Below are positions 3,567-56,140 of a stretch of 64,000 nt of DNA, in pieces. The notes beneath the pieces were generated by a model. It was given only the letters and a program-made list of their open reading frames with translations, ran no database searches and had not been told where the DNA came from. The translations under genes and the position numbers were made by a program. This DNA comes from Bacillus sp. EB01 (GTDB lineage Bacteria; Bacillota; Bacilli; Bacillales; Cytobacillaceae): contig NZ_HG964497.1 in the NCBI RefSeq assembly GCF_000613125.1, positions 2,490,050 through 2,554,049 on the forward strand, read 5' to 3'. Position 1 is the first letter of the stretch; each line of letters begins with the position of its first letter.

Positions 3567-3780
3567 GGCATTTTAGGAACAATGCTTAGGGGCACTTTAG
3601 TGGTTTGTCGTTTGTTCGTGGACATTTTAATCATTCAACTAAGGTAAATTGTACCCGAAAATGTGTTTCAAGGACATTTTGGATTTCTACCTAAGGCAAA
3701 TTGTACTTGATAGTATATTTCGAGGACATTTTAGCTAAATGGCTATGACAATATGTCCTCGACAGACTTCGGTCATTTAT
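3567..3780. repeat. 52-bp tandem array, GGACATTTT family
   Basis: Three GGACATTTT words start at 3620, 3672 and 3724, exactly 52 bp apart, with a degenerate fourth copy at 3567 (GGCATTTTAG). The second half of the units also aligns (TAAGGTAAATTGTAC and TAAGGCAAATTGTAC). The last unit has inverted arms GAGGACAT and ATGTCCTC. It lies between two genes of the same operon and is not an open frame. The same word occurs inverted at 29161. Confidence 0.85.
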
Positions 3781-3843
3781 CCTCTGCGCTTTTTCACAAT
3801 GGCGTTTTGCTTATGTACTATTGTTCAAAAATTTATATAAAAG

Positions 3844-3880
3844 AAGAGGAATTCCGGTTGCAGAATTCCTCTTTTTTACG
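3844..3880 (-). terminator. Hairpin between the binding-protein and permease genes
   Basis: Perfect 11-bp arms AAGAGGAATTC/GAATTCCTCTT (3844-3854 and 3863-3873) with an 8-nt loop. The T run is stronger on the plus strand (six T) than on the minus strand (CTTTTAT). It lies just behind the binding-protein stop, so it may attenuate transcription into the permease genes. Confidence 0.65.
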
Positions 3881-3894
3881 TCTTATTACCCAAA

Positions 3895-4824
3895 TTACTT
3901 GCCCAGGAACGCTTTCTTGAAGAATTCGAGCTGATATTCAAGTGTAAGGGGATCATTAAAGTAAAACTCTTTCGCATCAACTTCAAACACACGGTTATTT
4001 TTCACTGCTGGAATGTTCTTGTAAGTTTCAGTCTGCTGGAAGGATGTGTCGCCATCTGCATTTTTACTGAAGATGACGTAGTCGCCGGCATAGTCTGAAA
4101 GGACTTCAGGGCTGATTGCAAAGAAGCCCGGCTTAAGTGCATCCTGTTTAACTTTTTCAGGCATGTTGAGCTTCATTTCCTGGTAGAGAATTTCTGTACC
4201 GCGAGCGAAGTTGTTGCCGAATACGTAAAGCTGCTTTTCTTGGTTTTCGATAACGGAAACTGTCACATCCGCACCGATTTTTGCTTTAATTTCTTCTCCG
4301 GCAGCCTGAGCTTGTTTCTTGAAGTTATTAACCCAATCTGTTGCTTCTTTTTCTTTGTTCAAAAGTTTCCCAATTTCGATATGTTGGGTAAGGTAGTCAT
4401 TTTTGCCATACGTGTAAGTAATCGTTGGCGCGATTTCTTTTAGTCTGTCAACATCTTTGATGGAAGACAAACCTATAATTAGATCTGGCTCTAGCTCAAT
4501 AATTTTCTCCAAGTTATCTTCGGTTACCACTTCTGCATTCTTCAACCCTTCCTCAAATCGGGGATTGGCTTTTGACCAGGCATCAATTCCTACTATATTA
4601 CCGCCAAGTGCAAGCACATTACCGGAAAAAGAGAAAGAGAGTACTACAATTCGTTTTGGATTTGCTGGTACTTCAACCGGTCCGTTTTCGGATTGATACG
4701 TGATGGTTGTTGGTTCATCTTTCTTCTCAGGCTCTTTGGAAGAGCTGTTGTTGTTAGAGTTGCTGCCGCATGCACTAAGCACCAGTACCAGTGCGAGCAG
4801 GGATGGTAGAAGTTTTTTTAGCAT
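3895..4824 (-). CDS. Ferric-hydroxamate substrate-binding lipoprotein (FhuD/YxeB family)
   Basis: A 309-residue class III periplasmic-type binding protein. It has a signal peptide with lipobox LSAC (Cys19), a Ser/Asn-rich linker, then a body with VPANPKRIVVL, the usual first strand of the family. The C-terminal part (GDYVIFSKNADGD, then DPLTLEYQLEFFKKAF) is close to FhuD, which suggests hydroxamate siderophores such as ferrioxamine or ferrichrome. The Shine-Dalgarno AAAGGAGA with 8-nt spacing lies inside the ATPase gene, and the two coding regions overlap by 50 nt. It works outside the membrane with the two permeases and the ATPase of this cluster. Confidence 0.88.
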   Translation of the reverse strand: MLKKLLPSLLALVLVLSACGSNSNNNSSSKEPEKKDEPTTITYQSENGPVEVPANPKRIVVLSFSFSGNVLALGGNIVGIDAWSKANPRFEEGLKNAEVVTEDNLEKIIELEPDLIIGLSSIKDVDRLKEIAPTITYTYGKNDYLTQHIEIGKLLNKEKEATDWVNNFKKQAQAAGEEIKAKIGADVTVSVIENQEKQLYVFGNNFARGTEILYQEMKLNMPEKVKQDALKPGFFAISPEVLSDYAGDYVIFSKNADGDTSFQQTETYKNIPAVKNNRVFEVDAKEFYFNDPLTLEYQLEFFKKAFLGK

Positions 4825-5620
4825 GTTTGTTTTCTCCTTTTAGTAGGTTGTAAGTTAAAATCATTGGTTTTTTTGTATAAGGATCAACGCCGATTTCACA
4901 ATCGATGTTGAATACTTCTCTAAGTACTTTTTTATTGATAACAAAATCGCAAGTTCCAGATTTGACGATTTGCCCGTCTTTCATCGCGATGATGTGGTCA
5001 GCAAAGCGCGCAGCCTGGCTAAGGTCGTGGAGAACCATAACGATTGTACGGCCTTGTTCGCGGTTCAGGTCCTGAAGCAATTCAAGGACTTCGAGCTGAT
5101 GCGCCATGTCAAGGTATGTTGTCGGTTCATCGAGGAAAATAATATCGGTTTCCTGGGCTAATGCCATTGCGATCCAGACGCGCTGGCGCTGACCGCCTGA
5201 TAGGGCATCAATAGATTGATATTTGTAATCGATTGTTCCGGTTACTTCAAGTGCCCAGTCAATAACTTCAATGTCTTTTTTCGACAAACGGCCAAACCCT
5301 TTTTGATATGGGAAGCGGCCATATGAAACAAGTTCACCTACCGTCAAACCAGAAGAGCTTTCAGGTGTTTGGGGAAGGATCGCCATTTTCTTGGCAAGTG
5401 TTTTCGTGTCTTCGCGCTGGATGCTAACCCCATCGAGAAGGATGGAGCCGGACTGGTGCGAGATGATTCTCGACATCGCTTTTAAAAGAGTCGATTTTCC
5501 GCAGCCGTTCGGGCCGATGATCACGGTTATTTGGTTATCAGGAATCTCAACAGACAAATCTTTCACGATTGAGCGTTCTCCGTAGCCAACCTGCAAGTTT
5601 TCAGTATAAAGGCGATTCAT
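4775..5620 (-). CDS. Iron-siderophore ABC transporter ATP-binding protein (YusV/FhuC family)
   Basis: A 281-residue ABC ATPase. Walker A GPNGCGKST is at residues 36-44, followed by the Q loop, the signature LSGGQRQRV, Walker B DIIFLDEPT and the switch His in VLHDLSQ. The ATG at 5620 is preferred over 5626 because GGAGG then has normal 7-nt spacing. The C-terminal 16 or so codons overlap the binding-protein gene in another frame. The order ATPase, binding protein, permease, permease makes one minus-strand cluster that begins at the Fur box at 5656-5670, so it should be induced by iron starvation. The sequence resembles B. subtilis YusV, which serves several siderophore permeases. Confidence 0.9.
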   Translation of the reverse strand: MNRLYTENLQVGYGERSIVKDLSVEIPDNQITVIIGPNGCGKSTLLKAMSRIISHQSGSILLDGVSIQREDTKTLAKKMAILPQTPESSSGLTVGELVSYGRFPYQKGFGRLSKKDIEVIDWALEVTGTIDYKYQSIDALSGGQRQRVWIAMALAQETDIIFLDEPTTYLDMAHQLEVLELLQDLNREQGRTIVMVLHDLSQAARFADHIIAMKDGQIVKSGTCDFVINKKVLREVFNIDCEIGVDPYTKKPMILTYNLLKGENKHAKKTSTIPARTGTGA

Positions 5621-5655
5621 GATCATTCCTCCAAAACATTTACTAATTTTTCAAT

Positions 5656-5670
5656 TGATAATGATTATCA
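5656..5670. promoter_or_regulatory. Perfect 7-1-7 Fur box in a divergent promoter
   Basis: TGATAAT-G-ATTATCA is an exact match to the 7-1-7 Fur operator of Bacillus. It lies 36 bp from the ATPase start and about 110 bp from the reductase start, in the only gap between the two divergent units, so one Fur dimer pair could repress both. Confidence 0.9.
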
Positions 5671-5778
5671 GTTTCGCTTACAATTAACACTATAAAGGGA
5701 TTCGGAAATTCCGTCAATGACAAACCTGTGACAAATAACACATACATCATTAAATATGGCAAAACAAAGGAGAAACCT

Positions 5779-6828
5779 ATGAATAAAGCGGACATTTACG
5801 ATTGCATTATCATCGGAGGAGGGCCAGGCGGATTATATTCCGCTTTTTACGCAGGCCTCCGGAATATGAAAGTGAAGCTGATTGAGGCCCAGCCTGTACT
5901 TGGCGGAAAAATTAATTTGTATCAGGAAAAGCTGATATGGGATGTTGGAGGATTTGCTCCGGTAACCGGCAGGGATTTAATTGGTCATTTGGTTAAACAA
6001 GCAATGACGTTTGAACCAGAGGTGGTTTTAAATGAGAAAATCACTTCATTTTCAAGAAATGAAGAGGGAATTTTCGTGCTTGAGGGCGCCTCCGGTGAGG
6101 TTCATTTTTCAAAAACTGTCATTGTTGCTATTGGGGCAGGCATCATCACTCCGAAGAAACTTGAGCTGGAAGAGGCATCCCGGTTTGAAGCTGCCAACTT
6201 GCACTATTCGGTGGATTCAATTAGACGTTTTAAGGATAAGGTCGTTCTTATTTCCGGTGGTGGAAATTCCGCTATTGATTGGGCAAACTTGCTCGAGCCA
6301 GTTGCCAGGAAGGTGTATTTAACCTATCGGAAGGGTGCTTTTGCTGGCCATGAAGCCCAAGTCTCACAGCTGGAGAACAGCGGTGTAGAATGCCTGATGA
6401 ATACAACAATCAGCCGCCTCGTTCCTATAGGCGGGGAGGAGAGAATTGGCGAAGTTGAGCTTGTATCGAGCGAAACAGGCAGGGAGATAAGTATCGGCGT
6501 TGACGAAGTGCTTGTAACACACGGTTTTGACCAGGACGCCTCACTTTTTGCCAATAGTAAGTTAGACATTAAGACGCTTGATAATTTTTATTTGAAAAAT
6601 ACGCCAACCGGGGAAACATCAATACCAGGACTATACGGCGCAGGGGATATAGTGAAATACGATGGCAAGGTTTTCTTGATTGCGGGTGCGTTCCAAGATG
6701 CTGCAAATGCCGTGAACAGGGCTAAGAAATTCATTGAGCCTGAAGCAGGTGAAATGGCGATGGTCTCGTCCAATCACGAAGCCTTCAAACAGATGAACAG
6801 GGAGTTAGTTTTCAAGATGGTGGAATAG
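5779..6828 (+). CDS. Ferredoxin/flavodoxin--NADP+ reductase-like flavoprotein (YumC/YcgT family)
   Basis: A 349-residue thioredoxin-reductase-fold flavoprotein without the CxxC pair. It carries the FAD motif IIIGGGPGGLYS near the N-terminus, the NADPH motif VLISGGGNSAIDWA in the middle, and the late FAD motif GLYGAGDI. This pattern fits the FNR-like branch typified by B. subtilis YumC and its Fur-regulated paralogue YcgT. The start at 5779 follows AAAGGAG with good spacing; the in-frame ATG at 5728 has none. Facing a Fur box and a siderophore transporter, it may supply electrons for reductive release of iron from imported ferric hydroxamates. That role is inferred from context. Confidence 0.85.
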   Translation: MNKADIYDCIIIGGGPGGLYSAFYAGLRNMKVKLIEAQPVLGGKINLYQEKLIWDVGGFAPVTGRDLIGHLVKQAMTFEPEVVLNEKITSFSRNEEGIFVLEGASGEVHFSKTVIVAIGAGIITPKKLELEEASRFEAANLHYSVDSIRRFKDKVVLISGGGNSAIDWANLLEPVARKVYLTYRKGAFAGHEAQVSQLENSGVECLMNTTISRLVPIGGEERIGEVELVSSETGREISIGVDEVLVTHGFDQDASLFANSKLDIKTLDNFYLKNTPTGETSIPGLYGAGDIVKYDGKVFLIAGAFQDAANAVNRAKKFIEPEAGEMAMVSSNHEAFKQMNRELVFKMVE

Positions 6829-6879
6829 CAGATATAATACAAATTTTGGTTGGATGCATTCAAGATAAATAACACATAA

Positions 6880-6914
6880 AAATGACGTGGGAAATTGGAA
6901 CACGTCATTTTTAT
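6880..6914 (+). terminator. Rho-independent terminator after the reductase gene
   Basis: Arms AAATGACGTG/CACGTCATTT (6880-6889 and 6901-6910) followed by TTATT. Confidence 0.8.
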
Positions 6915-7088
6915 TATTTATAGGGTCCTTAAGCAAGTTATAAAAAGTACGGTTTCATTAAACAGGACATTATTCCAGAAGGATAACGGCCTTTTTTGTC
7001 GAATCTGTTATTCAACGCGGCTGGTTTAATATGGAATTTTAATTTATGTATTTGTTTTTATTCCAAATCAATATATGAGGTGGAAGTT

Positions 7089-7811
7089 TTGCCTAAAATA
7101 GGCCTCTTAACAGTTACTCACGATCCGGATGGAAAAAACATAAGGTTATTCAATGAACTTCAAAGAGAACTAGAAGATATTTATGAAGAATTGTTTTTAA
7201 CCATCAGTGAAGAATCTTCAATTGAGTACATCAAGGAAATGGAAAATAGCAAGTTTACTTTAAAAATTATTCCTAAAAAAGGCGCGGCCCAGGCAAGACG
7301 AGAAGTGGTGGATTTTGGGCTAAACGGAGAAAGTGACTATTACCATTACTGTGATTTTGACAGGCTTTTAACCTGGGGTGCAAATCATTTAAAAGAACTA
7401 AGAACGATTGTTTCTGCCATCCCAAATTACGATTATCTCATTTTGGGACGTACTGACAGAGCTATGAATACTCATCCGCCCGAATGGGTGGAGACTGAGA
7501 AAATAACAAACAAAATTTGTTCCCTTGAACTAGGTATGGACGTAGACATTACTGCTGGCTCCTGTTCATTTTCAAGAAAAGCCGCTGAATATATTAATAA
7601 ATATTCGTGCGAAAAAATGACTGATTCTGAATGGGCAATGATCGCTCACAGGATTGCAAAATTGAAGGTAGATTATGCTTCGGTTGAGGGTTTAGAATAT
7701 CACGAAGATATTAATGGATTAAACAGGGTTCTGAGTAATTCTGAAAAATGGTTAGGGAGATTGAGACTAGCTTTAATCATAAGCGAAACAGCAATTAAGA
7801 CAGGAAAATAA
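7089..7811 (+). CDS. Putative glycosyltransferase-like protein of unknown function
   Basis: About 240 residues starting at a TTG preceded by GAGGTGG with 4-nt spacing. The open frame continues upstream, but the extra N-terminal stretch looks non-coding and no better site is visible. The N-terminus (PKIGLLTVTHDPDGKNIR) followed about 85 residues later by YYHYCDFDRLLTW suggests a GT-A-like nucleotide-sugar fold with DFD in place of the usual DxD. Later segments include DYLILGRTDRAM and DVDITAGSCSFSRKA. No signal peptide or membrane segment is present, so it is cytoplasmic. I do not recognise a named family; the glycosyltransferase idea rests on fold-like spacing only. Confidence 0.55.
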   Translation: MPKIGLLTVTHDPDGKNIRLFNELQRELEDIYEELFLTISEESSIEYIKEMENSKFTLKIIPKKGAAQARREVVDFGLNGESDYYHYCDFDRLLTWGANHLKELRTIVSAIPNYDYLILGRTDRAMNTHPPEWVETEKITNKICSLELGMDVDITAGSCSFSRKAAEYINKYSCEKMTDSEWAMIAHRIAKLKVDYASVEGLEYHEDINGLNRVLSNSEKWLGRLRLALIISETAIKTGK

Positions 7812-7879
7812 CTTGTTTTTTTGTCCATAAAGTTGGAAAGTGTCATACGTTTGTTTAAAAGGAGAAAGGAGGGATTCTG

Positions 7880-8638: not shown

Positions 8639-8797
8639 AACTCTAATTACTATTTTAATATACGTTGACTCAAAAGCAGTGATTTCGCCTAATGATTATC
8701 AGAAATTTACATATTTTCAAACAGGACATTTGAAGTTGAAAATTTGTTAGAGTAGAATAACTTTGTCTAGAAAATATATACATAACGGGGGATGACC

Positions 8798-9337: not shown

Positions 9338-9343
9338 AATGGA

Positions 9344-9385
9344 AATAATCCTTCAGGACTTCGAACCTGAAGGATTATTATTTTT
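9344..9385. terminator. Bidirectional terminator between convergent genes
   Basis: Perfect 14-bp arms (9344-9357 and 9366-9379) around an 8-nt loop, followed by ATTTTTC on the plus strand. The arm overlaps the stop codon of the minus-strand HXXEE gene. Confidence 0.88.
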
Positions 9386-9914: not shown

Positions 9915-9921
9915 GTTCTTC

Positions 9922-10470: not shown

Positions 10471-10489
10471 TTTTTTCCTCCGTTTTTAA

Positions 10490-10804
10490 AAATAATATAA
10501 CACAATCTGAAGGATATTGGACCTATGCAAAAATTCTTTACCAAAAAACAACGGGAAAATGACAAATTGGTCAAGTTGTTTTCTGAATACTCCGCACTTT
10601 AAGATATAATTTTAAAACCGCTGAATTACTATAAAAACTGTTCGAATTAATAAAAAAACCGCTGAATTATTTTCTGGACAGAGCAGTCACTCGCTGATTC
10701 GAATTGGTTTTTTTAATTGTATAAAAACCATTTAATTTTAAATTCCTATCGGATTAATATAATATAAAACTACTACATAGTTTTTAACCTAGGGGGATGT
10801 TGGA
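10490..10804. other. AT-rich gap between divergent genes
   Basis: About 315 bp without a gene. It holds two copies of ACCGCTGAATTA (10617 and 10658, 41 bp apart) and a TATAAT at 10758-10763 that could be the -10 box of the downstream gene, though no good -35 is seen. Confidence 0.5.
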
Positions 10805-12383: not shown

Positions 12384-12549
12384 TACCATAAAACGGTACG
12401 CGAAATTATTTATCCCCTTGTCACAATTTTATCGGACGGTTTTGGAAATTTATCACCCTCTTTAAAGATTATATCGGACAGTTTTACAATTATATCGGAA
12501 GTTTTAACAATCCAGACACATTTACACCCAAGGCACAAACAACAAAAAG
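12384..12549. repeat. 21-bp-period dispersed element, copy A
   Basis: Begins ACCATAAAACGGTACGCG, runs through TTATCCCC and units TATCGGACGGTTTTGG, TATCACCCTC, TATCGGACAG and TATCGGAAG spaced 21 bp, and ends AATCCAGACACATTTACACC. The same ends and units occur at 12588 and 29388. Read on the minus strand the 21-bp units give heptads of the type DIIVKLS. Confidence 0.8.
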
Positions 12550-12587
12550 GTCGGATACCAGAGAGCTGCCTGCAGGGTAATTTGTCT

Positions 12588-12768
12588 CACCATTAAACGG
12601 TCCGCGAAATTATTTATCCCTCTGTCACAATTTTATAACCCTGTTTCACATTTTTAACGGACGGTTTAACAATTATATCGTCCTGTTTCACAATTTTATC
12701 GGACAGTTTCACAATTATATCGCCCGTATTCACAATCCAGACACATTTACACCCAAGCCAAAACCACA
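12588..12768. repeat. 21-bp-period dispersed element, copy B
   Basis: Begins CACCATTAAACGGTCCGCG and carries seven or so 21-bp units such as TATAACCCTGTTTCACA, TAACGGACGG and TATCGGACAGTTTCACAA. It ends with the same AATCCAGACACATTTACACC as copy A. The minus strand is open through the whole copy (heptads DKIVKQD, DIIVKPS), ending at a TAA that is at the same position in copies A and C. Confidence 0.8.
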
Positions 12769-17624: not shown

Positions 17625-18332
17625 TTGAAACATTACCATACTCTGCTTTTCGATGTGGATAACACGCTGCTTGATTTTACAGCAACAGAACAAGAAGCGC
17701 TTCGTTCTCTTTTCCAATCGGAGGGCCTGTCATTTACTCCTGAATTGCTGTTTGCTTACAAGCAGCTGAACCAAAGCCTTTGGACCGCATTCGAGCAAGG
17801 AACGATTACAAGGGATGAACTTTTCTATACCCGATTCTCGCGCTTTTTCAGCGGATTGGGCAAAGATGTTGATGGTGTCCTGCTTGAATATAAATACCGC
17901 AGCCTTCTTGATGAAGGGCACCACTTAATCCCTGGGGCAATGGATCTTATCATGCGTCTCCATGAAAATCACAATCTTTATATCATCACCAACGGCATCT
18001 CGCAAACACAACACCGGCGTTTGACCGATTCCGGACTGCTGCCGTTTTTCAAAGACGTTTTCGTTTCCGAGGATACAGGCTACCAGAAGCCTATGAAGAA
18101 ATATTTTGAGTATGTGATTGAGCGGATTCCCGGTTTTGAACCCGAAAACACACTCATCATCGGCGATTCCCTAACCGCTGACATTAAGGGCGGCAACCTG
18201 GCTGGTATTGACACGTGCTGGTTTAATCCTGGAATCGAAGCCAATGAAACTGACATTCTGCCAACCTATGAAATCAGGAGCCTTGACGAACTTCATGATA
18301 TTCTTGTACCGGACCTGACTGCTGTCCGCTAA
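17625..18332 (+). CDS. HAD-superfamily hydrolase, YjjG/YfnB-type nucleotidase
   Basis: A 235-residue HAD hydrolase with all four motifs: LFDVDNTLLDF (Asp10 nucleophile, Asp12 acid/base), IITNG, the Lys in QKPMKKYF and IGDSLTADIKGG. The cap domain is C1-type. The overall sequence fits the YjjG/YfnB group, which removes phosphate from non-canonical pyrimidine nucleotides and so cleans the nucleotide pool. It starts at TTG with GAGG about 10 nt upstream, so translation may be modest. It is preceded by a terminator and stands alone. Confidence 0.85.
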   Translation: MKHYHTLLFDVDNTLLDFTATEQEALRSLFQSEGLSFTPELLFAYKQLNQSLWTAFEQGTITRDELFYTRFSRFFSGLGKDVDGVLLEYKYRSLLDEGHHLIPGAMDLIMRLHENHNLYIITNGISQTQHRRLTDSGLLPFFKDVFVSEDTGYQKPMKKYFEYVIERIPGFEPENTLIIGDSLTADIKGGNLAGIDTCWFNPGIEANETDILPTYEIRSLDELHDILVPDLTAVR

Positions 18333-21516: not shown

Positions 21517-21553
21517 AGTTTCTGATGAAGAAAAGTGTTAGTTATATATATCC

Positions 21554-21812
21554 GATGAATGACAACTCAGGCAGTCCATTGAAGCAAAATGTCATTCATT
21601 AAGCTAATGAATGACAACTCGGGCAGCCCATTGAAGCCAAATGTCATTCATTAAGCCGATGAATGACAACTCGAGCAGCCCGCTGAAGCCAAATGTCAGT
21701 CATAAAGACGATGAATGACAACTCAGGCAGTCCCAGGAAGACAGATGTCATTCATAAAGACGATGAATGACATCTCGGGTTTGGTGAGGCAGCGAACTGT
21801 CATTCATTAACT
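21554..21812. repeat. 52-bp tandem hairpin array, ATGAATGACA family, five units
   Basis: Units start at 21554, 21606, 21658, 21710 and 21762, each exactly 52 bp. Every unit begins with ATGAATGACA and has the inverted arm TGTCATTCAT about 36 nt further (one unit with a single mismatch). The centre varies (CTCAGGCAGTCC, CTCGGGCAGCCC and so on). As 52 is not a multiple of three it cannot encode a periodic protein. Confidence 0.92.
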
Positions 21813-24351: not shown

Positions 24352-24513
24352 ACAAAAATAAAAGGACTTCCATAAGAAGAAGTCCCGAAATGTCATCCGT
24401 TTCCTCTTATCTGTCAGGCTTTTAACCTGCTGGAGTTAGCACCATCGCTGATAAAAATCAGCCGGTTGCTGAGGCTTCATAGGGCCAGTCCCTCTGCCTC
24501 TCTGGATAAGAAC
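24352..24513 (-). promoter_or_regulatory. SAM-I (S-box) riboswitch with terminator
   Basis: On the minus strand the aptamer runs from about 24513 to 24403: TTCTTATCCAGAGAGG at the 5' side, CAGAGGGACTGGCCC, ATGAAGCCTCAGCAACC, GGTGCTAACTCCAGC, and the closing GACAGATAAGA. A terminator hairpin GGACTTC/GAAGTCC (24364-24385) with a T run follows. High SAM should stabilise the aptamer and end transcription before metI. Confidence 0.95.
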
Positions 24514-25935: not shown

Positions 25936-26250
25936 GGTTCGTGGTGGAAAAATCTTGTCCCGTGCCGCTACGATTAATCCACTAAATGTGGTTTCGTGGA
26001 AAAATCTTGTCCCGTGCGGCTACGATTAAACCACTAAATGTGGTTTCGTGGAAAAATCTTATCTCGGATCACTACTATTAATCCACTAAATGCGGTTTCG
26101 TGGAAAAATCTTGTATCGTATCACTACGATTAATCCACTAAATACAGTTTCGTAGAAAAATCTTGTATCGTATCACTACGATTAATCCACTAAATACGGT
26201 TTCATGGAAAAATCTCTTATCATGCCACCAGGATTGATCCAATAAAAATG
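25936..26250. repeat. 52-bp tandem array, GGTTTCGTGGAAAAATC family, six units
   Basis: Units start at 25990, 26042, 26094, 26146 and 26198, each exactly 52 bp, with a first unit at about 25936. The core GTTTCGTGGAAAAATCTTG is strongly kept; the centre varies (TCCCGTGCGGCTAC versus TATCGTATCACTAC) and ACGATTAATCCACTAAAT closes the unit. Arms GTGGA and TCCAC are inverted, and CCAC-TAAAT-GTGG spans unit borders. Confidence 0.92.
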
Positions 26251-28512: not shown

Positions 28513-29151
28513 ATGAGGAACTGGGAGAAAGCCTTAGTAAAAGTTCAGAAGCTAGTTACGGATGCTGGGTCTGATTTGGAATGGATCCTTGTCGGTTCAG
28601 TCGGTTCGGTCCTTCAGGGAGCGGAGATGGAGCCTGGGGATATTGACGTATATGTCAGGCACCAGGAGGACGTAAGCCGTTTTGCCGAGTTGTTTAGATC
28701 GTACTCACGGGAATCAAGTACGGAAGGGGAACCTGGTGCCGACTGGTATTCGTCCAGGGACGTTCCGATTTTCACACAAACATTTCCGTCCGGTTTTTCC
28801 TGGACAAAAGGCCGCTGGGTAATTGAAGGATGTGAAGTTGAAGCCGTACATATTGGTAATTCGGCAGGCATTTCAGATAACCTCACAGGTGATGGGATAT
28901 GGGAAGGCGGAAAATACATTTGGGACATGTACAAGGAAGTCGCGTTTCAAGGATATAAGTTTCGTGTTGTGCCGCTAGAAATCCAGCTGGAATCGAATTT
29001 GCGGCGCGGCAGGCAAGACAGAGCGGAAGCAATCTTGGATGCCCTGCGAACGAATGGTTATGATTCTGAGCTGCTAAGTAAAGCACTCTCCGCAAAACAT
29101 CTCGAATCAATTGATTTAATGAAGAAAGTTCAAGGACAATTTGAGGTGTAA
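28513..29151 (+). CDS. Nucleotidyltransferase-fold protein
   Basis: A 212-residue protein with the pol-beta nucleotidyltransferase signature: GSVGSVLQGAEM followed by GDIDVYV, giving the Gly-Ser and the Asp-x-Asp metal site, and a third acidic position in CEVEAVHIG. The C-terminal half is helical (LESNLRRGRQDRAEAILDAL). Such proteins include antibiotic adenylyltransferases and MNT-type toxin-antitoxin enzymes; no HEPN partner is adjacent. AGGAGG lies 8 nt before the ATG. Two different 52-bp repeat arrays follow it directly. Confidence 0.8.
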   Translation: MRNWEKALVKVQKLVTDAGSDLEWILVGSVGSVLQGAEMEPGDIDVYVRHQEDVSRFAELFRSYSRESSTEGEPGADWYSSRDVPIFTQTFPSGFSWTKGRWVIEGCEVEAVHIGNSAGISDNLTGDGIWEGGKYIWDMYKEVAFQGYKFRVVPLEIQLESNLRRGRQDRAEAILDALRTNGYDSELLSKALSAKHLESIDLMKKVQGQFEV

Positions 29152-29160
29152 CGGATAGGA

Positions 29161-29266
29161 AAATGTTCTCGAAATCGTCTTTGAAGGACAATTTGGTATG
29201 TCTACATATTTGAAATGTCCTCGAAACCACATATTGGGTTTCTTGCTTACTGAAAATGTCCTTTGC
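29161..29266. repeat. 52-bp array, inverted copy of the GGACATTTT family
   Basis: AAATGTTCTCGAAATC at 29161 and AAATGTCCTCGAAACC at 29213 are exactly 52 bp apart; a shortened third AAATGTCC follows at about 29254. The word is the reverse complement of the 3620-3724 array. Within the first unit GGACAATTT is inverted relative to the AAATGTTC start. Confidence 0.75.
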
Positions 29267-29304
29267 TACGTAAAAATAGTTAGATTTCTTCATCCTTAAA
29301 TAGA

Positions 29305-29408
29305 CTTGATTGGAACTGTTTCGAGCTTCCCGGCAGGTCAAAATGTAACCAATAGGCTTGATCGGAACCGTTTTGAGGTGATTTTTTCCACCATTGGTGG
29401 GTTCCCGA
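29305..29408. repeat. 52-bp repeat pair, CTTGATYGGAACYGTTT family
   Basis: CTTGATTGGAACTGTTTCGAG at 29305 and CTTGATCGGAACCGTTTTGAG at 29357 are exactly 52 bp apart. It directly follows an array with an unrelated word and runs into element C of the 21-bp family. Confidence 0.7.
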
Positions 29409-29575
29409 AATTATTTATCCCCATGTCACAATTTTATAACCCTGTTTCACATTTTTATCGGACGGTTTTGGAAATTTATCACCCTTTTTAAAGATTATAT
29501 CGGACAGTTTCACAATTATATCGGACGTATTCACAATCTAGACACATTTACACCCAGGCACAAACAACAAAAAGT
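29388..29575. repeat. 21-bp-period dispersed element, copy C
   Basis: Shares GAAATTATTTATCCCC, the 21-bp units (TATAACCCTGTTTCACA, TATCGGACGGTTTTGG, TATCACCC, TATCGGACAGTTTCACAA) and the end AGACACATTTACACCC with copies A and B at 12384 and 12588. The minus-strand frame that is open in copy B has a TAG here, so it is not a maintained gene. Confidence 0.8.
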
Positions 29576-43366: not shown

Positions 43367-43771
43367 ATGGGTGGCTTTGAACAGGAAATGGGTGGCTTTG
43401 AACAGGAATTTGTCATGTTCGATATGTTGTCAGTTATCGTTCCACTATTCTTTGTATTAGTATTCGGTATTATCATATTCTCATTTGTTAAAGGGGCCAA
43501 AGAATGGTCGGATAATAACAAACAGCCGCGGCTGATTGTGCCGGCAAAGGTTGTATCCAAACGGACTCAGGTGCGCGGTGGCCACAATGATACCTCTGCC
43601 CACACGTCTTATTTTGTAACCTTTGAAGTTGAAAGTGGCGACCGGATGGAAATGCACATCAATGGTAATGAATTCGGATTGCTGGCGGAGGGGGATTACG
43701 GCGAGTTGAGCTTCCAGGGCACCCGTTATCTTGGATTTTCGAGGAGTACATCTTTCACTCAAACAATATGA
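43367..43771 (+). CDS. DUF2500 membrane protein with duplicated N-terminus
   Basis: 134 residues. One membrane helix (VIVPLFFVLVFGIIIFSFV) is followed by a beta-rich DUF2500 domain (VPAKVVSKRTQVRGG, YFVTFEVESGDRMEMH, LLAEGDYGELSFQGTRYLGF). The first 21 bp, coding MGGFEQE, are perfectly repeated, so the protein begins with this heptapeptide twice. Both copies carry an ATG; AAGGAGGG is correctly spaced to the first. Function unknown; co-transcribed with the preceding gene. Confidence 0.8.
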   Translation: MGGFEQEMGGFEQEFVMFDMLSVIVPLFFVLVFGIIIFSFVKGAKEWSDNNKQPRLIVPAKVVSKRTQVRGGHNDTSAHTSYFVTFEVESGDRMEMHINGNEFGLLAEGDYGELSFQGTRYLGFSRSTSFTQTI

Positions 43772-49053: not shown

Positions 49054-49182
49054 GATTCCCATCCTTTCAAAAAGTGTTAACTACAAAATTAAATAATTCC
49101 ACTATGTACTTTCTTACCAGAAATAATACGAAGCATGTATTCTTTCATTACTAAATTTGTTCCGGTCGAAATGACTTAGTCT

Positions 49183-49442
49183 ATTGGATACGTTTCATCC
49201 CAGGTTACGACTCAAAATGTCCCCAATAGAGTTTATTGAACATGTTTCAACCTAAAATTCACCTCAAAATGTCTCCAATACCGTTCATTGGATACGTTTC
49301 AGCCCAAGCTGCACATCAAAACGTGACCAATGTGATTCAATGGACACGTTTCATCCCAGGTTGCACCACAAAACGCGTCCAATGTGATTCAATGGACACG
49401 TTTCATCCCAGGTTGCGGGTGAAATGTTACCGATAGACTGAA
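49183..49442. repeat. 52-bp tandem hairpin array, ATTGGACACGTTTCA family, five units
   Basis: Units start at 49183, 49235, 49287, 49339 and 49391, each exactly 52 bp. The opening ATTGGACACGTTTCA is inverted in the same unit as AAACGCGTCCAAT about 32 nt further, so each unit is a long dyad; the fourth unit has 12 of 13 pairs. It lies between two divergent genes. Confidence 0.92.
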
Positions 49443-50009: not shown

Positions 50010-50105
50010 AAAACGAATCCATTAAAAAACTAATAAATGCTTTACTTTTGTTTTCATTAGTTGTAGAGTATCTATATACCTAATAAACCTAGGTAGGTGA
50101 TGATG

Positions 50106-50438: not shown

Positions 50439-50605
50439 GATAAACTTTCAACAGTGGGGCTCCCACGCTGGGGATTGTCCCGCGATGCCCAAGTGATTCG
50501 AAGAAATTTTTAATTCACATATCGTACCTTTAGGGGGACAATGGCTGCATTGTTGGCATTCCCCTATAGGTAAGATAAAATGACTTATTTTCAGGAGACG
50601 GACGA

Positions 50606-51292: not shown

Positions 51293-51352
51293 GCTTTTTT
51301 TTGCACAACTACCTAGAATTTCTATATAGATAGAAAAGGGAGGATGATAAAC

Positions 51353-52810
51353 ATGCAACTACGAATGAGGAAAGAGGATTGGCTGTTTTTGTTGCTTTGC
51401 CTGGGACTGGGAATTCTAGCAGAGGAAGCGTTCTTATGGTCCCAGCTTGGGATATCGCATTTCATTTTTATTGGTGCATTTTACAGTTTGTTTTTCTGGA
51501 GATTCAGAGGCTTCCCATTCCGGAATCAACGCCTCGGCTGGCTCGTGCTCGGTGCAATCTGGATTCTTTCGGCCAGCTATTTCCTATACGATATAGACGT
51601 TTTTTACGCCTTAAATCTGCTGGCAATCCCGGCACTGGTAGTTTTCCATATTTCACTCATAACCGGGCCAAAACAGGCCGACTGGGCAAAACCCGCATTC
51701 CTAATCCATATCATTAAGCGGCTCTTTGATAGCATCGCCTATAATGTTGGATTTGCCCGCCTGCTTGGCCGGATAGCTCAGCACAGGGCGAAGGGAAAGA
51801 ATACCGCTGTGGCAACAAAAATACTGATTGGAATCGGAATTTCCATCCCGGTATTATTTGTGGTCTTAAACCTGCTCATTTCCGCCGACAGCCAGTTCGA
51901 ACGCATAATCACAACCGTTCCCGACTGGTTCAGCTTTGATGGCGAAATACTCTTCCGTATCATCGCCATCTTAATCTTTACGTTCTCATTCTTTGGTTTT
52001 ATGCAAGTTCATTTGAAAAATAGAGCGGAAATTAAAACAATCCAAATCGGCGAACAGGCCTGGGGGTTCGACCCAGTCATTATACTCACGGTCTTGTTGC
52101 TGTTGGACGCGGTCTATATGCTGTTTGTCGGCGTGCAGTTTACTTATTTCTTCAGTGGAACGCTTGGAGAAGGCTACACTTATGCTGAATATGCGCGACG
52201 GGGCTTCTTTGAATTAGTTTTCGTATCGCTAATCAATTTAACGGCAACCGTAACCTTCCTTTCTATTTTGAAAAAAAGAGAAGGGGGGCTGTGGAAGGCA
52301 ATTCAGTTGGGCCTTTCTGTACTGGTTCTTTCATCCGGCGTCATTCTCGCATCAGCATTCATGAGGATGATGATGTACGAGGAGGCGTACGGGTTTACGA
52401 TTTTAAGGGTGCTCGTGCATTCCTTCATGGTATTCCTGCTTATCATTTTCGCCTACACGCTTTTGAAAGTTTGGCTTAACCGTCTGTCGCTGATTCATTT
52501 TTATTTCATCGCCGCACTTGTGTATTATACTGTCCTGAATGTCATTGGCATTGACAGGATTGTAGCTGATCGGAACCTTGAACGATTTGAACAAACGGGG
52601 AAAATTGATGTTGCCTACCTTGGTTATATGTCGGATACGGGGCTTCTGACGCTAATCGATTTGTATAAGATTCAACCAAATCTCCCAGGTCTAAAGGAAG
52701 AATTGAAGAATCATTTGGCTGAAGCCGAAACGAGGGAGGAGCACTGGCAGGCGTATAACCTTACCCGTGAACGCGCCAGGGAAAAACTCATGGAGCTCGA
52801 TTTAAAGTGA
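51353..52810 (+). CDS. DUF4173 multi-spanning membrane protein
   Basis: 485 residues with about twelve membrane helices and a soluble C-terminal tail. The region FVLNLLISADSQFERII with the following VPDWF, the GFDPVIILTVLLLLDAVYMLFVGVQFTYFFSG segment (given here in parts) and YTYAEYARRGFFELVFVS are typical of DUF4173. GGGAGG lies 9 nt before the chosen ATG; the ATG at 51344 abuts it. TCTATATAGA occurs just upstream, resembling TATCTATATACC before padR, so PadR may control it too. Confidence 0.85.
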   Translation: MQLRMRKEDWLFLLLCLGLGILAEEAFLWSQLGISHFIFIGAFYSLFFWRFRGFPFRNQRLGWLVLGAIWILSASYFLYDIDVFYALNLLAIPALVVFHISLITGPKQADWAKPAFLIHIIKRLFDSIAYNVGFARLLGRIAQHRAKGKNTAVATKILIGIGISIPVLFVVLNLLISADSQFERIITTVPDWFSFDGEILFRIIAILIFTFSFFGFMQVHLKNRAEIKTIQIGEQAWGFDPVIILTVLLLLDAVYMLFVGVQFTYFFSGTLGEGYTYAEYARRGFFELVFVSLINLTATVTFLSILKKREGGLWKAIQLGLSVLVLSSGVILASAFMRMMMYEEAYGFTILRVLVHSFMVFLLIIFAYTLLKVWLNRLSLIHFYFIAALVYYTVLNVIGIDRIVADRNLERFEQTGKIDVAYLGYMSDTGLLTLIDLYKIQPNLPGLKEELKNHLAEAETREEHWQAYNLTRERAREKLMELDLK

Positions 52811-52819
52811 TTAAATACT

Positions 52820-52850
52820 AACGGCCTCCCGAAAAGGAGGCCGTTTTGTT
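52820..52850. terminator. Bidirectional terminator between convergent genes
   Basis: Perfect 10-bp arms AACGGCCTCC/GGAGGCCGTT around CGAAAA, then TTGTTTT. Confidence 0.88.
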
Positions 52851-53519
52851 TTATATGCTCATAGTTGACTCATGGCGATGTTGGATAAGGCTCTGATAAA
52901 AAGAAGCCATTGTTGCAGTAAAGTATGGAACAAGCCAGATAAAACCAATTCCGAGAGTCAAAACTGACAGGAAAGCCCAGCCTAAAAAGCTAAGCGTCAT
53001 CAAGAAATACTTGCCTTTGTAGCCGTCCATCAGCTTACGGCTTTCAGTAATCGCATCGTTGACGACCATATCCGGGTTGTCCTTCAGAATGAAATAAGCC
53101 TGGGAATATGCGATTCCTTTTATAATTCCCGGCACAATCAAAAGAAGCATCCAAAGGAAAGTATAGATAAGCGTCAGCAAGTACAGGCCCAATGTTTTAA
53201 AATAGATGCCGGCCTTTGAAACTGTGCTGAACAAACTTCCAATACTGACAGGGTTGCCTCTCCGTATGTCAAGAAATGCCCAGTAGTAGCTGTAAAGAAT
53301 TGGGCTAAGAGCTATTGTTGCAATCCAGGATAAAGTAGACGCTTCGGCGGACGGCACATCGGCATTGTACCACGCCTCAAAACCACCACTTCCCAAAATT
53401 TCAATAAACATAGGAATAAAATTAAACAGTCCAAATGTAATGATGGACAGTACAATCGCCGTTCCCCATCTGCCTTTCAGGGCAGCAAGCGCATCCCTCT
53501 TAATCTCTTTAATTATCAA
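52851..53519 (-). CDS. DUF975 family membrane protein
   Basis: A 222-residue protein with five or six membrane helices. IKRDALAALKGRWGTAI at the N-terminus, LPxxGxxK-like VPGIIKGIAYSQAYFILKDNP and ITESRKLMDGYKGKYFLM are diagnostic of DUF975. It has GGGGGAA before the ATG. Function unknown; not obviously linked to the convergent PadR unit. Confidence 0.88.
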   Translation of the reverse strand: MIIKEIKRDALAALKGRWGTAIVLSIITFGLFNFIPMFIEILGSGGFEAWYNADVPSAEASTLSWIATIALSPILYSYYWAFLDIRRGNPVSIGSLFSTVSKAGIYFKTLGLYLLTLIYTFLWMLLLIVPGIIKGIAYSQAYFILKDNPDMVVNDAITESRKLMDGYKGKYFLMTLSFLGWAFLSVLTLGIGFIWLVPYFTATMASFYQSLIQHRHESTMSI

Positions 53520-53690
53520 ACTCGATTCCCCCTAACTTTTTCTCTTTGTAAAGTATATATCAAAAGTTCCGGGTCTACCTCTATAAAATTTATGGAAAAA
53601 ACAGGTGGTTGTTAAATGTGAAGCTTATTAAAAAATGATTTGGAACCCAGGCTTTGGGATGAGTGGAAGCAGCATTTTTAGTAAATAAAT

Positions 53691-53717
53691 CATCCTCCCA
53701 AGAAGTTTGGGAGGATG
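53691..53717 (-). terminator. Terminator of the monooxygenase-like gene
   Basis: Perfect 10-bp arms CATCCTCCCA/TGGGAGGATG (53691-53700 and 53708-53717). Confidence 0.8.
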
Positions 53718-53723
53718 CAAGTG

Positions 53724-54752
53724 CTAGTCATTCAATTCCTTCATGATCATGGCAGCATACTCGAATGATTTAAGGCGCTCGTCGTGGTCAAAGATTTGTG
53801 CGTTGATGATGACCTCATCCGCTGAGGTTTCTTCAAGGAATTCCTGCAAACGGGTTTTAACGATTTCCTTAGTTCCTGTAAAGGTAGAATTGGTGCGGCC
53901 CTCAAGCAGCAGCAGTTCGTAATCACTCGCCAGGTGTTTCAAACTTTCCACAGGCGGCTGAAGCTTGCCAGGGCGGTTTCTTATTAGCTGAAGGAATTGC
54001 TGCTGCATCGAAGTAGCCAGCCAGTTTGCCTTTTCCTCTGTATCAGAGGCGATAATATTTACGCCCACCATTGCGTATGGCTCATCCAGTACGTCTGATG
54101 GCCGGAAAGATTGCCGGTAAATATTCAAAGCGGCAAGAGTATTTTCCGGTGCAAAATGGCTTGCAAATGCAAAAGGCAGGCCCAGCTTTCCTGCAAGTTC
54201 GGCACTGAAGCCGCTTGAACCGAGCAGCCAGACTGGTACATTCAGCCCTTCACCCGGGATGGCACGAACATGGATGACGCCTTCCCGCCTCGAAGGATCA
54301 AAATAAGCCCGCAGTTCCTCTACCTGATTCGGGAAATCTTCAGCACCTGTTCGCCAGTCACGTCTCAGTGCCGAAGCGGTTAGCTGGTCGGTACCGGGGG
54401 CCCGTCCAAGACCTAAGTCAATTCTGCCTGGAAAAAGCGATTCCAATGTCCCGAATTGCTCAGCGATAACAAGCGGGGAGTGGTTCGGCAACATAATCCC
54501 ACCGGACCCAACACGGATAGAAGCCGTATGGGCGGCCACTTGCCCGATAACGACTGCAGTCGCTGAACTCGCAATCCCCGGCATATTGTGGTGCTCGGCA
54601 AGCCAAAAGCGATGATAGCCCCACTTTTCGGCATGCTGTGCAAGGTCAACTGTGTTTTTCAACGACTCCGCCGGTGTGCTTCCCTGTGTTACCGGGGACA
54701 AATCCAGAACCGAGTAACGGACACTTTTTTTATCTATAGACACATCAATCAC
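53724..54752 (-). CDS. LLM class flavin-dependent oxidoreductase (luciferase-like monooxygenase)
   Basis: A 342-residue TIM-barrel flavoprotein of the MsnO8/YceB-like branch. Features are [58 protein letters not shown] (in parts) and [33 protein letters not shown] is the typical later loop. It uses reduced FMN and oxygen; the substrate is unknown. The promoter with a palindromic spacer lies at 54779-54806. Single gene. Confidence 0.9.
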
Positions 54753-55110
54753 TTCTTTCTAAAGACTTCTTCACTCGGATTGTATCAATTTAACACGTGT
54801 TCTCAAAATAGATTGACTTAATTATACCTGGTTTTGCGGGCACCGGAACAGGTCTTAGAGGGATATTTAAAAGGTACTACGATACGGTGCAATTCTTTAT
54901 AACTATTAGGTGGGGTTTCATAGTTATTTTTCTCTAGTGATACTCGAAAGATTCACTAGTCAAGTATATAGCCGAATTCTGAACTGCACTTGAAGCTATC
55001 ATATTTAGAAGTTCCCCTTTTGAAAATAAATTGTTCAACGAGTAATCCGATACCAGTTTCTTGCAACTTCGTCCTTGAATCAATAATATGGAGAAAAAAG
55101 CAGAGGAAGG
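54753..55110. other. Divergent intergenic region
   Basis: Besides the promoter at 54779, it has an AT-rich hairpin ATAACTAT/ATAGTTAT (54899-54927) followed by four T, of unclear role. No gene is seen. Confidence 0.45.
54779..54806 (-). promoter_or_regulatory. Promoter with a palindromic spacer for the monooxygenase-like gene
   Basis: On the minus strand TTGAGA, 16 nt, TACAAT. The spacer contains the perfect palindrome AACACGTGTT (54792-54801), a candidate repressor site. Confidence 0.6.
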
Positions 55111-55710
55111 ATGAGCAACTTGACCAACGTATTGCCACCAGGCCAATTTGAAACAGGAAAATGGGCGATCCTCCATCAAGGCGAAGTATACAAATTTAAT
55201 GAAGAAACTTGGCGGTTCCGCCTTTTTGGAGAGGTTGAACAACAACAGACTCTTACCTACAAACAGGTGATGGAGCTGCCAAAAACCACCTCGACGATTG
55301 ATATGCATTGTGTAACAACCTGGTCGAAGTTCGCAACTACATTTGAAGGAGTTTCCCTTAGGGATCTCTTAAAGCTAGTGAAAGTAAAGGAAGATGCAAA
55401 GTACATAAAAATATATGGTTATTTAGACGGCGATCCGGAAGGTTATTCTGCGAATTTGCCGCTTGCCCCACTGATGGGGGATGATTCACTTTTCGTTTAT
55501 CGCTGGAAGGATGAGCATCATGGCTGGCAGGACGTCGATCCGAAACATGGGTATCCTCTGAGATTTATTCCACCTGCAACCTTTTATCTTTGGAAAGGGA
55601 CAAAATGGGCAACAGGAATTGAATTTTTAAAAGAAGACGAAGCTGGATTTTGGGAACAGCTCGGTTACTCCATGTCTGCCAATCCATTCAAAGAGGAACG
55701 TTATCGCTGA
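55111..55710 (+). CDS. Molybdopterin-dependent oxidoreductase, sulfite-oxidase fold (YuiH-like)
   Basis: A 199-residue protein of the sulfite oxidase molybdopterin domain family, about the length of B. subtilis YuiH. The molybdenum ligand is Cys67 in IDMHCVTTWSKF. YSANLPLAPLMGDDSLFVY, HGYPLRFIPPATFYLWKG and KWATGIEFL complete the fold. No signal peptide and no heme domain, so it is cytoplasmic and its electron partner is unknown. The ribosome site overlaps the start closely (GAGGAAGG ATG). No other molybdenum gene lies in the window. Confidence 0.87.
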   Translation: MSNLTNVLPPGQFETGKWAILHQGEVYKFNEETWRFRLFGEVEQQQTLTYKQVMELPKTTSTIDMHCVTTWSKFATTFEGVSLRDLLKLVKVKEDAKYIKIYGYLDGDPEGYSANLPLAPLMGDDSLFVYRWKDEHHGWQDVDPKHGYPLRFIPPATFYLWKGTKWATGIEFLKEDEAGFWEQLGYSMSANPFKEERYR

Positions 55711-55738
55711 TAATAAGAGCTCCGGACAGCTATGAAAC

Positions 55739-56140
55739 CGAATTACGCGGCTAAATTGTTGGTTCCGAATCTCTTGAAACCAGATTATGACAAGCTAGCA
55801 ATGATTCCGAATTCCTCGGAACCTAGTTACGAGGCCAAATTTTTGGTTCCGAATTTCTCGGAACCAGGTTATGACATCCAAGCAAATGATTCTGAATTCT
55901 TCGGAACCAAGTTGCGGGGCCAATTGTTGATTCCGAATTGCTCGAAACCCAGTTATGCCAAGCTAGCATATGATTCCGAAATCTTCGAAACCGAGTTGCT
56001 TGGCCAATTGTTGGCTCCGAATTCCTCGAAATCAGGTTAGGGCAATCTAGCATATGGTAAAGAATCATAACTGGCATCCGGTTACCTGCAATGAAAAGCT
56101 TGCCCTTGGCAGGTTCCGAACGATTCGGAACCTGACTTCG
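55739..56140. repeat. 84-bp higher-order hairpin array (two about 42-bp halves)
   Basis: TTCCGAATT-type words start at 55763, 55847, 55931 and 56015 (exactly 84 bp apart), with a second word halfway in each. Half A continues with GGCCAATTGTTGG-like, half B with CAAGCTAGCATATGA-like sequence. Several words form hairpins GGTTCCGA...TCGGAACC. The array ends at 56111-56133 with a perfect 10-bp hairpin AGGTTCCGAA/TTCGGAACCT. It is open in one frame from 55732 to 56040 but without a ribosome site. Confidence 0.9.

What the first reader, a model, noticed from the sequence alone, without database searches (positions are those of the whole stretch)
3567..56140. A common architecture of helically phased intergenic repeats with different sequence words
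Seen: arrays at 3567, 21554, 25936, 29161, 29305 and 49183 all have a unit of exactly 52 bp (unit starts checked base by base), yet they use at least five unrelated words (GGACATTTT, ATGAATGACA, GGTTTCGTGG, CTTGATYGGAAC, ATTGGACACG). A seventh locus has an 84-bp unit of two about 42-bp halves, and three more elements have 21-bp units. Most units contain an inverted repeat. Inference: 21, 42, 52 and 84 bp are close to 2, 4, 5 and 8 helical turns (10.4-10.5 bp each), so successive dyads would face the same side of DNA. Spacing is conserved while sequence is not. This fits a protein that recognises shape or spacing, a hairpin array in RNA, or a copying process that measures length. I know of no described family with this rule.
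Basis: partly seen in the sequence, partly recalled or inferred. Interest (0 to 1): 0.88.

Follow-up and report, generated by a model that had tools for sequence, protein, structure and literature searches.

The report
Fixed-ruler inverted-repeat arrays in Bacillaceae
Scattered between the genes of these Bacillus-type bacteria are tandem arrays of paired mirror-image DNA sites whose letters differ from family to family and species to species while their spacing (31 bases inside a unit, 52 bases per unit) stays fixed, which suggests selected docking arrays for an unidentified DNA-binding system.

Summary
In 2.064 Mb of the 5.28-Mb genome, 68 loci repeat at exactly 52 bp; the median over lags 20-160 is 1. 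Each unit is an imperfect palindrome: two inverted ~15-bp half-sites whose cores span 31 bp, with 21 bp to the next unit (227 of 249 and 190 of 210 steps). Six word classes fit this in one genome. Relatives use other words with the same ruler: TTGGGACA (108 and 31 units in two species); TTCTGACA, where 71 of 78 listed sites, from four genera, are exactly 41 bp although 31-56 were allowed. Outside the family lengths scatter (2 of 25 are 41 bp). Between close species arrays change by whole units, loops change twice as fast as half-sites, and other indels inside units are rare. Polarity shows no clear relation to genes, divergent gaps are avoided, and no gene family recurs beside arrays. Best reading: selected DNA-binding-site arrays resembling parS-F or BIME-2, reader unknown; a REPIN-like mobile hairpin is the main rival. 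The 'whole helical turns' rule is not established.

The parts
3609..3768 (.). 52-bp array, class C (TTTCRAGGACATTTT..AATTGTACTCGAAA), three units, between Peripla_BP_2 and FecCD genes
   Evidence: Pfam; near-identical in relative G007
21550..21810 (.). 52-bp array, class D (GATGAATGACA..TGTCATTCAT), five units, between DMT_YdcZ and Cys_Met_Meta_PP genes
   Evidence: Pfam
25936..26248 (.). 52-bp array, class A (GGAAAAATC/GATTAATCCAC), six units; two units in G007, none in G005
29129..29228 (.). 52-bp array, class C, two units
29304..29380 (.). one and a half class-B units (TTGGAACTGTTTC..AAAATGTAACCAA), three half-sites; not seen at this place in G007
49178..49438 (.). 52-bp array, class B (TATTGGNNACRTTTY..RAAAYGTNNCCAATA), five units, between DUF4236 and VanZ genes; same class at the same place in G007 (four units) and G005 (three), absent in G004 and G006
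   Evidence: Pfam
55754..56056 (.). 84-bp array of two ~42-bp halves, GGTTCCGAATTCCTCGGAACC-type palindromes; another family, kept in G007 and as a short 41-bp array in G005
12461..12736 (.). 21/42-bp repeats (TTATATCGGACAGTTTCACAA); another family
29494..29537 (.). 21-bp repeats of the same TATATCGGAC family
10614..10669 (.). 21-bp repeats (AAAACCGCTGAATTAATAAA); another family

Best explanation
Each 52-bp unit is a ~47-bp binding site plus a 5-bp linker. The site has two inverted, slightly different ~15-bp half-sites with their cores 31 bp apart. A sequence-specific DNA-binding protein (or a small paralogous family, one member per word class) would bind each site as a dimer or tetramer, and neighbouring complexes, 52 bp (about five turns) apart on one face, would assemble cooperatively into a nucleoprotein array placed between genes all over the chromosome. 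The geometry is set by the protein scaffold; the words drift with its recognition surface, so species and paralogues differ in word but not in ruler. Arrays grow and shrink by whole units through slippage or unequal recombination and occasionally seed new loci. Shown: geometry, its constancy across words and genera, slower change of half-sites than loops, rarity of length changes inside units, whole-unit turnover, under-representation between divergent genes. Inferred: that a protein reads them, cooperative assembly, and any cellular role (chromosome organisation or topology is my guess).
For: Core distance 31 in 227 of 249 and 21 in 190 of 210 steps (the walk allowed only +-1). Sharp gap peaks in six classes (the near-palindromic half-site of class A also gives peaks at 19 and 44). 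Mean loop pairing (1-8 from the dyad) equals its null in class B and lies below it in C, D, F, A and G, and arms disagree more than chance at fixed positions, as for two distinct half-sites. G000/G007 orthologues, nine array pairs: substitutions 93/574 in loops, 78/1010 in half-sites, 23/171 in linkers. The class-B array at 49178 is kept in G005 although flanks are only 75-77% identical and loops have diverged. Arrays begin and end as whole 31-bp pairs in 41 of 71 chains, the opposite phase in 2, an odd number of half-sites in 28. Convergent gaps 24 of 79 (base 18.3%), divergent 8 of 79 (base 22.9%). Polarity against co-directional genes by class: B 6 of 13, C 4 of 8, D 2 of 4, F 3 of 11, A 6 of 10, G 1 of 4 (the sign is arbitrary in each class).
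Against: No reading protein was identified and none was tested. Some arm positions do change together more than chance (A at 20 and 22, D at 17 and 20, F at 19), which a hairpin predicts too. Rarity in divergent gaps and copy-number variation also fit a tolerated mobile repeat. Constraint on half-sites could in part come from gene conversion between arrays. Class F disagrees with the G-rich strand in 13 of 16 arrays. A weak tendency for the transcript strand to fold better (23 of 35, p=0.09; Wilcoxon p=0.025) leaves an RNA role open. Some 52-bp arrays have another sub-geometry.
Confidence: 0.43

Rival explanations
1. Non-autonomous mobile hairpins (REPIN-like): a transposase acting in trans recognises the two ends and a fixed length, excises or copies units, and makes the arrays; words follow the transposase.
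For: Chains end as whole hairpins 41 to 2 over the opposite phase; units have a conserved polarity, are extragenic, disperse (31 of 647 same-class locus pairs share a loop at >=80%) and vary in copy number; some arm positions covary; REPINs also keep spacer length (passages of PMC3116915).
Against: RAYT genes of this genome: no 52-bp array found by TRF in their ~1.5-kb flanks; one of four intact genes has two class-C-like half-sites 52 bp apart about 400 bp away (L074:1030-1095), a number of matches not above shuffles; the nearby repeats seen are CTAG-type. No gene family recurs beside arrays. Old copies at fixed loci change less in half-sites than in loops. REPIN spacings differ by class (71 and 110 bp); here the classes share one ruler.
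Confidence: 0.3
2. RNA hairpin arrays in 3' untranslated regions that stabilise or terminate transcripts.
For: Long imperfect stems; 40 of 57 lag-52 regions fold better than shuffles by two standard deviations on at least one strand (my count); enrichment between convergent genes and slightly more stable transcript strand; some arm positions covary.
Against: Loops do not covary and several arm positions disagree by rule; polarity shows no clear relation to genes; 8 of 79 arrays lie in divergent gaps; no Rfam family matches them.
Confidence: 0.12
3. Functionless satellites: one ancestral 52-bp unit spread and diverged, and length persists by descent because units are copied whole.
For: Three classes share ACATTT and another GACGAA/GACGGAA; copy number changes in whole units.
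Against: Loops differ at 16% of positions between G000 and G007, yet of 13 gaps inside array bounds only two (1 bp each) fall inside units away from array ends, against 194 substitutions; flanks have 40 gaps against 241. Half-sites change half as fast as loops; the ruler holds across genera.
Confidence: 0.12

Closest known systems
BIME / REP arrays of proteobacteria (PMC2817692, listing and passages seen)
   Same: Intergenic, many copies, imperfect palindromic units in alternating orientation at regular spacing, species-specific words; BIME-2 is reported there to bind DNA gyrase.
   Different: Inter-REP segments of Stenotrophomonas BIMEs are said to vary substantially in length; here one ruler serves many words. 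The half-sites here are mostly not hairpins themselves, and no RAYT of this genome was found to be flanked by them.
REPINs of Pseudomonas (PMC3116915, passages seen)
   Same: Two inverted conserved ends with a length-constrained, less conserved spacer; extragenic; sometimes tandem.
   Different: Mostly single elements, spacing differs by class (71, 110 bp), compensatory changes said to be common, linked to RAYTs.
parS-F (sopC) of plasmid F (PMC6238139, passages seen)
   Same: Tandem units (twelve of 43 bp) holding inverted repeats bound by a ParB protein.
   Different: One plasmid locus and one word, against many chromosomal loci with many words.
bcr1 and other stem-loop families of Bacillus (PMC2267715, passages seen)
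   Same: Repeated stem-loop elements in Bacillus genomes.
   Different: Its table gives Bcr1 167 bp, Bant-1 72 bp, Bhal-1 74 bp; the word 'tandem' does not occur in its text.
BOX elements of Streptococcus pneumoniae (PMC3049150, only search listing seen; modular boxA/B/C structure recalled)
   Same: Intergenic, stem-loop, variable number of tandem modules (recalled).
   Different: One sequence family; no shared ruler across words known to me.

Membership tests
BIME/REPIN with RAYT | RAYT gene flanked by the cognate repeat | tested here: not met
   Own genome: PF01797 hits include four intact genes of RAYT length (188-202 aa) and one broken. TRF lists no 52-bp array in their ~1.5-kb flanks. L074 has two class-C-like half-sites 52 bp apart (1030-1095) with no right arm at the 31-bp place; matches in L074 are not above shuffles. 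By eye, three of the four printed gene flanks carry CTAG-type repeats. Flanks beyond 1.5 kb were not seen.
BIME/REPIN with RAYT | Regularly spaced palindromic units in alternating orientation, extragenic | tested here: met
REP (GTAG or CGTC tagged) | 20-40-bp palindrome with an unpaired GTAG or CGTC tag | tested here: not met
   Oriented consensuses of six classes show no unpaired GTAG; CGTC occurs in some classes only and inside the paired arm (tag definition from passages of PMC3733652)
REPIN | Compensatory changes on the two sides of the hairpin | tested here: inconclusive
   Loops: mean pairing at or below null in six classes, with isolated positions above it (B 2, A 7, F 3); arms: concerted change at A 20 and 22, D 17 and 20, F 19, disagreement by rule at B 9 and 13, C 12, 16, 19, F 10, 12, 17, 20
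parS-F-like centromere | Bound by ParB, with a parAB operon beside it | not tested
   168 flanking proteins were compared with each other only; no binding data
Known RNA families (Rfam 15) | Match to a covariance model at its gathering score | tested here: not met
   Only a SAM riboswitch in the window, not at an array
BOX elements | boxA-boxB-boxC modules | not tested
   No BOX sequence was compared

The most novel reading that the evidence does not exclude
A chromosome-wide site system specified mainly by a ruler and only loosely by sequence: one scaffold (31/21-bp alternation, 52-bp repeat) is read in many interchangeable 'languages', several at once in one genome, switched between species of a genus, with arrays of one word able to stand in for arrays of another at the same gap. 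It would be a distinct kind of bacterial repeat whose conserved property is geometry.
Probability: 0.3. Interest if true: 0.88.

Novelty: new variant of a known kind. Interest (0 to 1): 0.74.

Why it matters
Searches for bacterial repeats cluster by sequence and would split this system into many small unrelated families; sorted by geometry it becomes one family over several genera of Bacillaceae. A fixed ruler with drifting words is the pattern expected when a DNA-binding scaffold is conserved and its recognition surface is not, so the arrays offer a way to find that protein and to watch recognition change between close species. If it organises the chromosome, it would be a dispersed-array counterpart of BIME-2 or parS in Gram-positive bacteria.

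Tried and rejected
RAYT as the engine: genes are present but the nearby repeats seen are of another type (for the weak class-C remnant beside one of them); RAYT-length genes also occur in G003 and G006. A link with one gene family: 168 flanking proteins compared with each other, 24 pairs listed at E<=1e-5 (some twice under two class labels), all of low identity (22-38%), and no family recurring at many arrays. Orientation by transcription or replication strand: no clear relation, except class F against the G-rich strand in 13 of 16 arrays. The one-contig genome appears to be a wrongly ordered pseudo-molecule (GC skew changes sign many times), so distance from the origin could not be tested. 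I first took G003 as free of arrays (100 kb sampled); one search shows ten TTCTGACA units there, so that was a sampling miss. G012 and G024 (20 kb each) showed no 52-bp array, too little to say they have none. Paper searches for a description: the titles and abstract starts listed show none of such arrays in Bacillaceae; lists are capped and the library holds open-licence papers only.

Rows dropped: 7 of 64 lag-52 regions were runs of N. Of 115 regions (own and relatives), 71 went into the dyad table and 44 were left out for weak or off-phase dyads. Of the 71, 40 have AC and GT at the 31-bp places, 13 one of the two, 18 neither (most of these are class A, whose core is AT/AT). The choice between the two dyads of an array used the AC/GT position itself, so that table alone does not prove the rule, which rests. 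In one search one of ten array pairs could not be aligned. Of 18 own/G007 array loci looked at, 15 keep their class (one of these, L139 at 17360, by the match table only), one is switched, one is absent, one was not resolved. Controls that count against single hits: the reversed TTCTGACA pattern also matches in about 60 of the 193 family genomes (my count), up to 4 times, so genomes with one match prove nothing.
Full report
WHAT WAS CHECKED. TRF and base-by-base reading confirm the 52-bp arrays of the window. The array given as 29305 is only one and a half units. The 21-bp, 42-bp and 84-bp repeats are other families.

MORE THAN CHANCE. I took 100 further 20-kb stretches spread over the genome, 2.064 Mb in all with the window. 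In the first 1.264 Mb the intergenic autocorrelation is 95 runs at lag 52, 53 at 104 and 30 at 156; the median over lags is 0 and shuffled intergenic DNA gives 0.4 at lag 52. Over 2.064 Mb, counting loci at an exact lag: 68 at 52, 47 at 104, 29 at 156, 19 at 51, 16 at 21, 10 at 42, 8 at 53, 7 at 37; median 1. Scaled up, that is roughly 170 loci in the genome (inference). The 100 stretches hold 0.64 loci on average with variance 0.80, so the arrays are spread nearly at random.

ANATOMY. Centred on their dyads, arrays of quite different wording fall into one register: outer word, core AC (often GAC; AT in the GGATTAATC class), an unconserved middle, core GT, outer word inverted; 40 of the 71 arrays in that table have both AC and GT in place, 13 one, 18 neither (mostly the AT class). 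The gap between converging half-sites is sharply fixed in six classes: B 65 pairs at 19 bp, C 37 at 19, D 18 at 19, F 54 at 17, A 63 at 17, G 12 at 25; with the half-site lengths used, all equal a core span of 31 bp. The half-site of class A is nearly a palindrome, so it matches on both strands and also gives peaks at 19 (42 pairs) and 44 (82). Walking along the arrays of five classes, the span is 31 in 227 of 249 steps and the bases to the next unit 21 in 190 of 210 (only +-1 was allowed). 41 of 71 chains of three or more half-sites start with a left arm and end with a right arm, 2 have the opposite phase, 28 have an odd number. So the unit is the 31-bp-core pair, not just any 52 bases. A second geometry keeps 52 with the dyad between two bases (for example G001 TTCGGGCACTAAG..CTTTAGTGACCGAA), and class H (ATGAAGGACGG..CCGTCTTCAT) has a longer core span (about 33 by hand).

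ARMS. Averaged over positions 1-8 from the dyad, loops pair as often as their null in class B (0.316 against 0.314) and less often in C, D, F, A and G; single positions exceed it (B 2, A 7, F 3). In the arms both things occur: some positions change together more than chance (A 20 and 22, D 17 and 20, F 19), others disagree more than chance (B 9 and 13; C 12, 16, 19; F 10, 12, 17, 20). After orienting units, each class shows two somewhat different half-sites. I read this as two recognition half-sites that stay roughly symmetrical while the word changes; a hairpin with fixed mismatches is not excluded. Loops have 48-55% G+C in five of six classes against 31-38% in their arms; class G is the reverse.

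CONTEXT. Among 79 arrays with both neighbours called (crude ORF calls), 24 lie between convergent genes (18.3% expected from gaps of at least 150 bp, p=0.0085) and 8 between divergent genes (22.9% expected, p=0.0048). Class polarity agrees with co-directional genes in B 6 of 13, C 4 of 8, D 2 of 4, F 3 of 11, A 6 of 10, G 1 of 4 (the sign is arbitrary in each class). Class F disagrees with the G-rich strand in 13 of 16. The transcript strand folds better in 23 of 35 (p=0.09; Wilcoxon p=0.025). The 168 flanking proteins show no family recurring at many arrays; in the window they are transporters, a peptidase, a Cys/Met enzyme, VanZ and the like.

RELATIVES. Seven other genomes of the genus were returned. 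The class-B pattern, with a free gap of 8-22, occurs 26, 28 and 28 times in the own genome, G005 and G007 and in none of 78 others, reversed control 0 in these; of the 75 forward sites listed 73 are exactly 43 bp and two 42 (my count). G001 and G004 have instead TTGGGACA (108 and 31 units), the own genome none; of the 30 forward sites listed for them 28 are exactly 41 bp. In other genera this pattern gives a few sites only, nearly all 31 bp long and of another make. G006 has GAGTGACAT..ATGTCATGC, and G010, of another genus, TTCGGACAAG..CTGTCAGAA, both 31/52. TTCTGACA with a free gap of 15-40 matches in 31 of 193 family genomes, 8 of 25 genera; 18 genomes have two or more matches (up to 72), where the reversed control reaches at most 4. 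In the order-wide sample, 25 forward sites listed outside the family have scattered lengths; two are 41 bp, both in family f9, one of them beside a 40-bp site 51 bp away, while the 7 in-family sites listed there are all 41. This is a built-in negative control and a hint that f9 has the system too.

EVOLUTION. Close relative G007 (flanks mostly 90-99% identical) keeps the class in 15 of 18 array loci examined; copy number differs by whole units (6 against 2 at 25936, 2 against 6 at L121:12929, 4 against 2 whole units at L058:14521); one locus has no array there; one was not resolved. At L058:7046 the own genome has a GGTAACAGAG array and G007 five units of a different class (ATGAAGGATGG..CCGCCTTCAT) in the same gap, whose whole intergenic DNA differs: one case of replacement, suggestive only. 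Over nine aligned array pairs, loops differ at 93/574 positions, half-sites at 78/1010, linkers at 23/171, flanks (partly coding) at 241/4365 with 40 gaps. Of the 13 gaps inside array bounds four make up three whole units, one is a 207-bp insertion at an edge, six lie at array ends or in a degraded first unit, and two are single bases inside units (the sorting is mine). The class-B array at 49178 persists in G005 with loops fully changed, while G004 and G006 have short gaps without an array; 25936 has none in G005.

EXPLANATION AND RIVALS. Old arrays at fixed loci keep half-sites and length better than loops. That argues for a function at the locus read in double-stranded DNA, and against decayed copies of a mobile element or a satellite. 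I therefore put a DNA-binding scaffold first (0.43), a REPIN-like mobile hairpin second (0.30), RNA hairpins (0.12) and functionless satellites (0.12) after it. The cognate protein is unknown.

COMPARISON. The nearest known things are BIMEs and REPINs; parS-F shows how a tandem inverted-repeat array can work. Passages read say that inter-REP segments of Stenotrophomonas BIMEs vary in length and that REPIN spacing differs by class, with compensatory changes. RAYT linkage was tested and not met within 1.5 kb. In the passages seen, CGTC REPs are listed from five phyla without Firmicutes, and the word Firmicutes does not occur in that paper. I therefore file it as a new variant of a known kind, dispersed palindromic arrays, and keep 'a ruler-defined family' as the novel case.

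Noticed in passing
L009:178-248, L010:9249-9324, L033:16151-16233, L050:14667-14774, L055:19054-19124, L063:3179-3254, L064:15271-15346: A 37-bp tandem family (TGTCCCTGCGATGATAATTCACAGAAGCTTTCCTTTG), seven arrays; also in G001 (L107:15961-16036). 37 bp is 3.5 helical turns, against the whole-turn rule.
   Followed up: no
window 12461-12736 and 29494-29537: A 20-21-bp family built on TATATCGGAC; look-alikes of 20-21 bp (TATATCC.., ATATCGCC..) occur in G001, G003, G004 and G005, so a second theme runs through the genus.
   Followed up: no
L071:2100-2616 (RAYT gene at 1501-1830): A RAYT gene beside 130-bp tandem repeats rich in ACTAGT; L049:12048-12408 holds a similar 117-bp array. Probably the true RAYT-cognate repeats of this clade.
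   Followed up: partly
L058:14775-15103 and G007:C1 near 2284176-2284380: A ~150-200-bp interspersed element (CTGCCCATTAAGAGTGGGATAAAG..): tandem and 97% alike beside a class-F array here; a related 207-bp insertion sits at the edge of a class-B array in G007.
   Followed up: partly
L139 about 17685-17930: A ~220-bp element matching about 35 places in G007, directly beside a class-B array.
   Followed up: no
window 55754-56056: 84-bp array of GGTTCCGAATTCCTCGGAACC palindromes every ~42 bp, of nearly the same length in G007 (462 against 461 bp of gap) and kept as a short 41-bp array in G005.
   Followed up: partly
L074:1030-1095: Two class-C-like half-sites 52 bp apart about 400 bp from an intact RAYT gene, without a proper right arm; matches in this locus are not above shuffles.
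   Followed up: partly
window 24404-24512 (-): SAM riboswitch upstream of the Cys/Met metabolism genes.
   Followed up: no
window 43367-43408: A perfect 21-bp direct repeat that contains the start codon of the ORF 43367-43771; also in G007.
   Followed up: no
G000:C1, sampled stretches: GC skew changes sign many times along the single contig, so it is probably a pseudo-molecule of unordered scaffolds.
   Followed up: partly
L014:8394-8700 and L104:5551-6542 (G005): 52-bp arrays with little palindromic content (GGCACTGACAAGGC..CTGTTACC; TATCAACGACC..GGGCGTTGAT, about 18 units 97% alike): same period without the clear 31-bp pair.
   Followed up: partly
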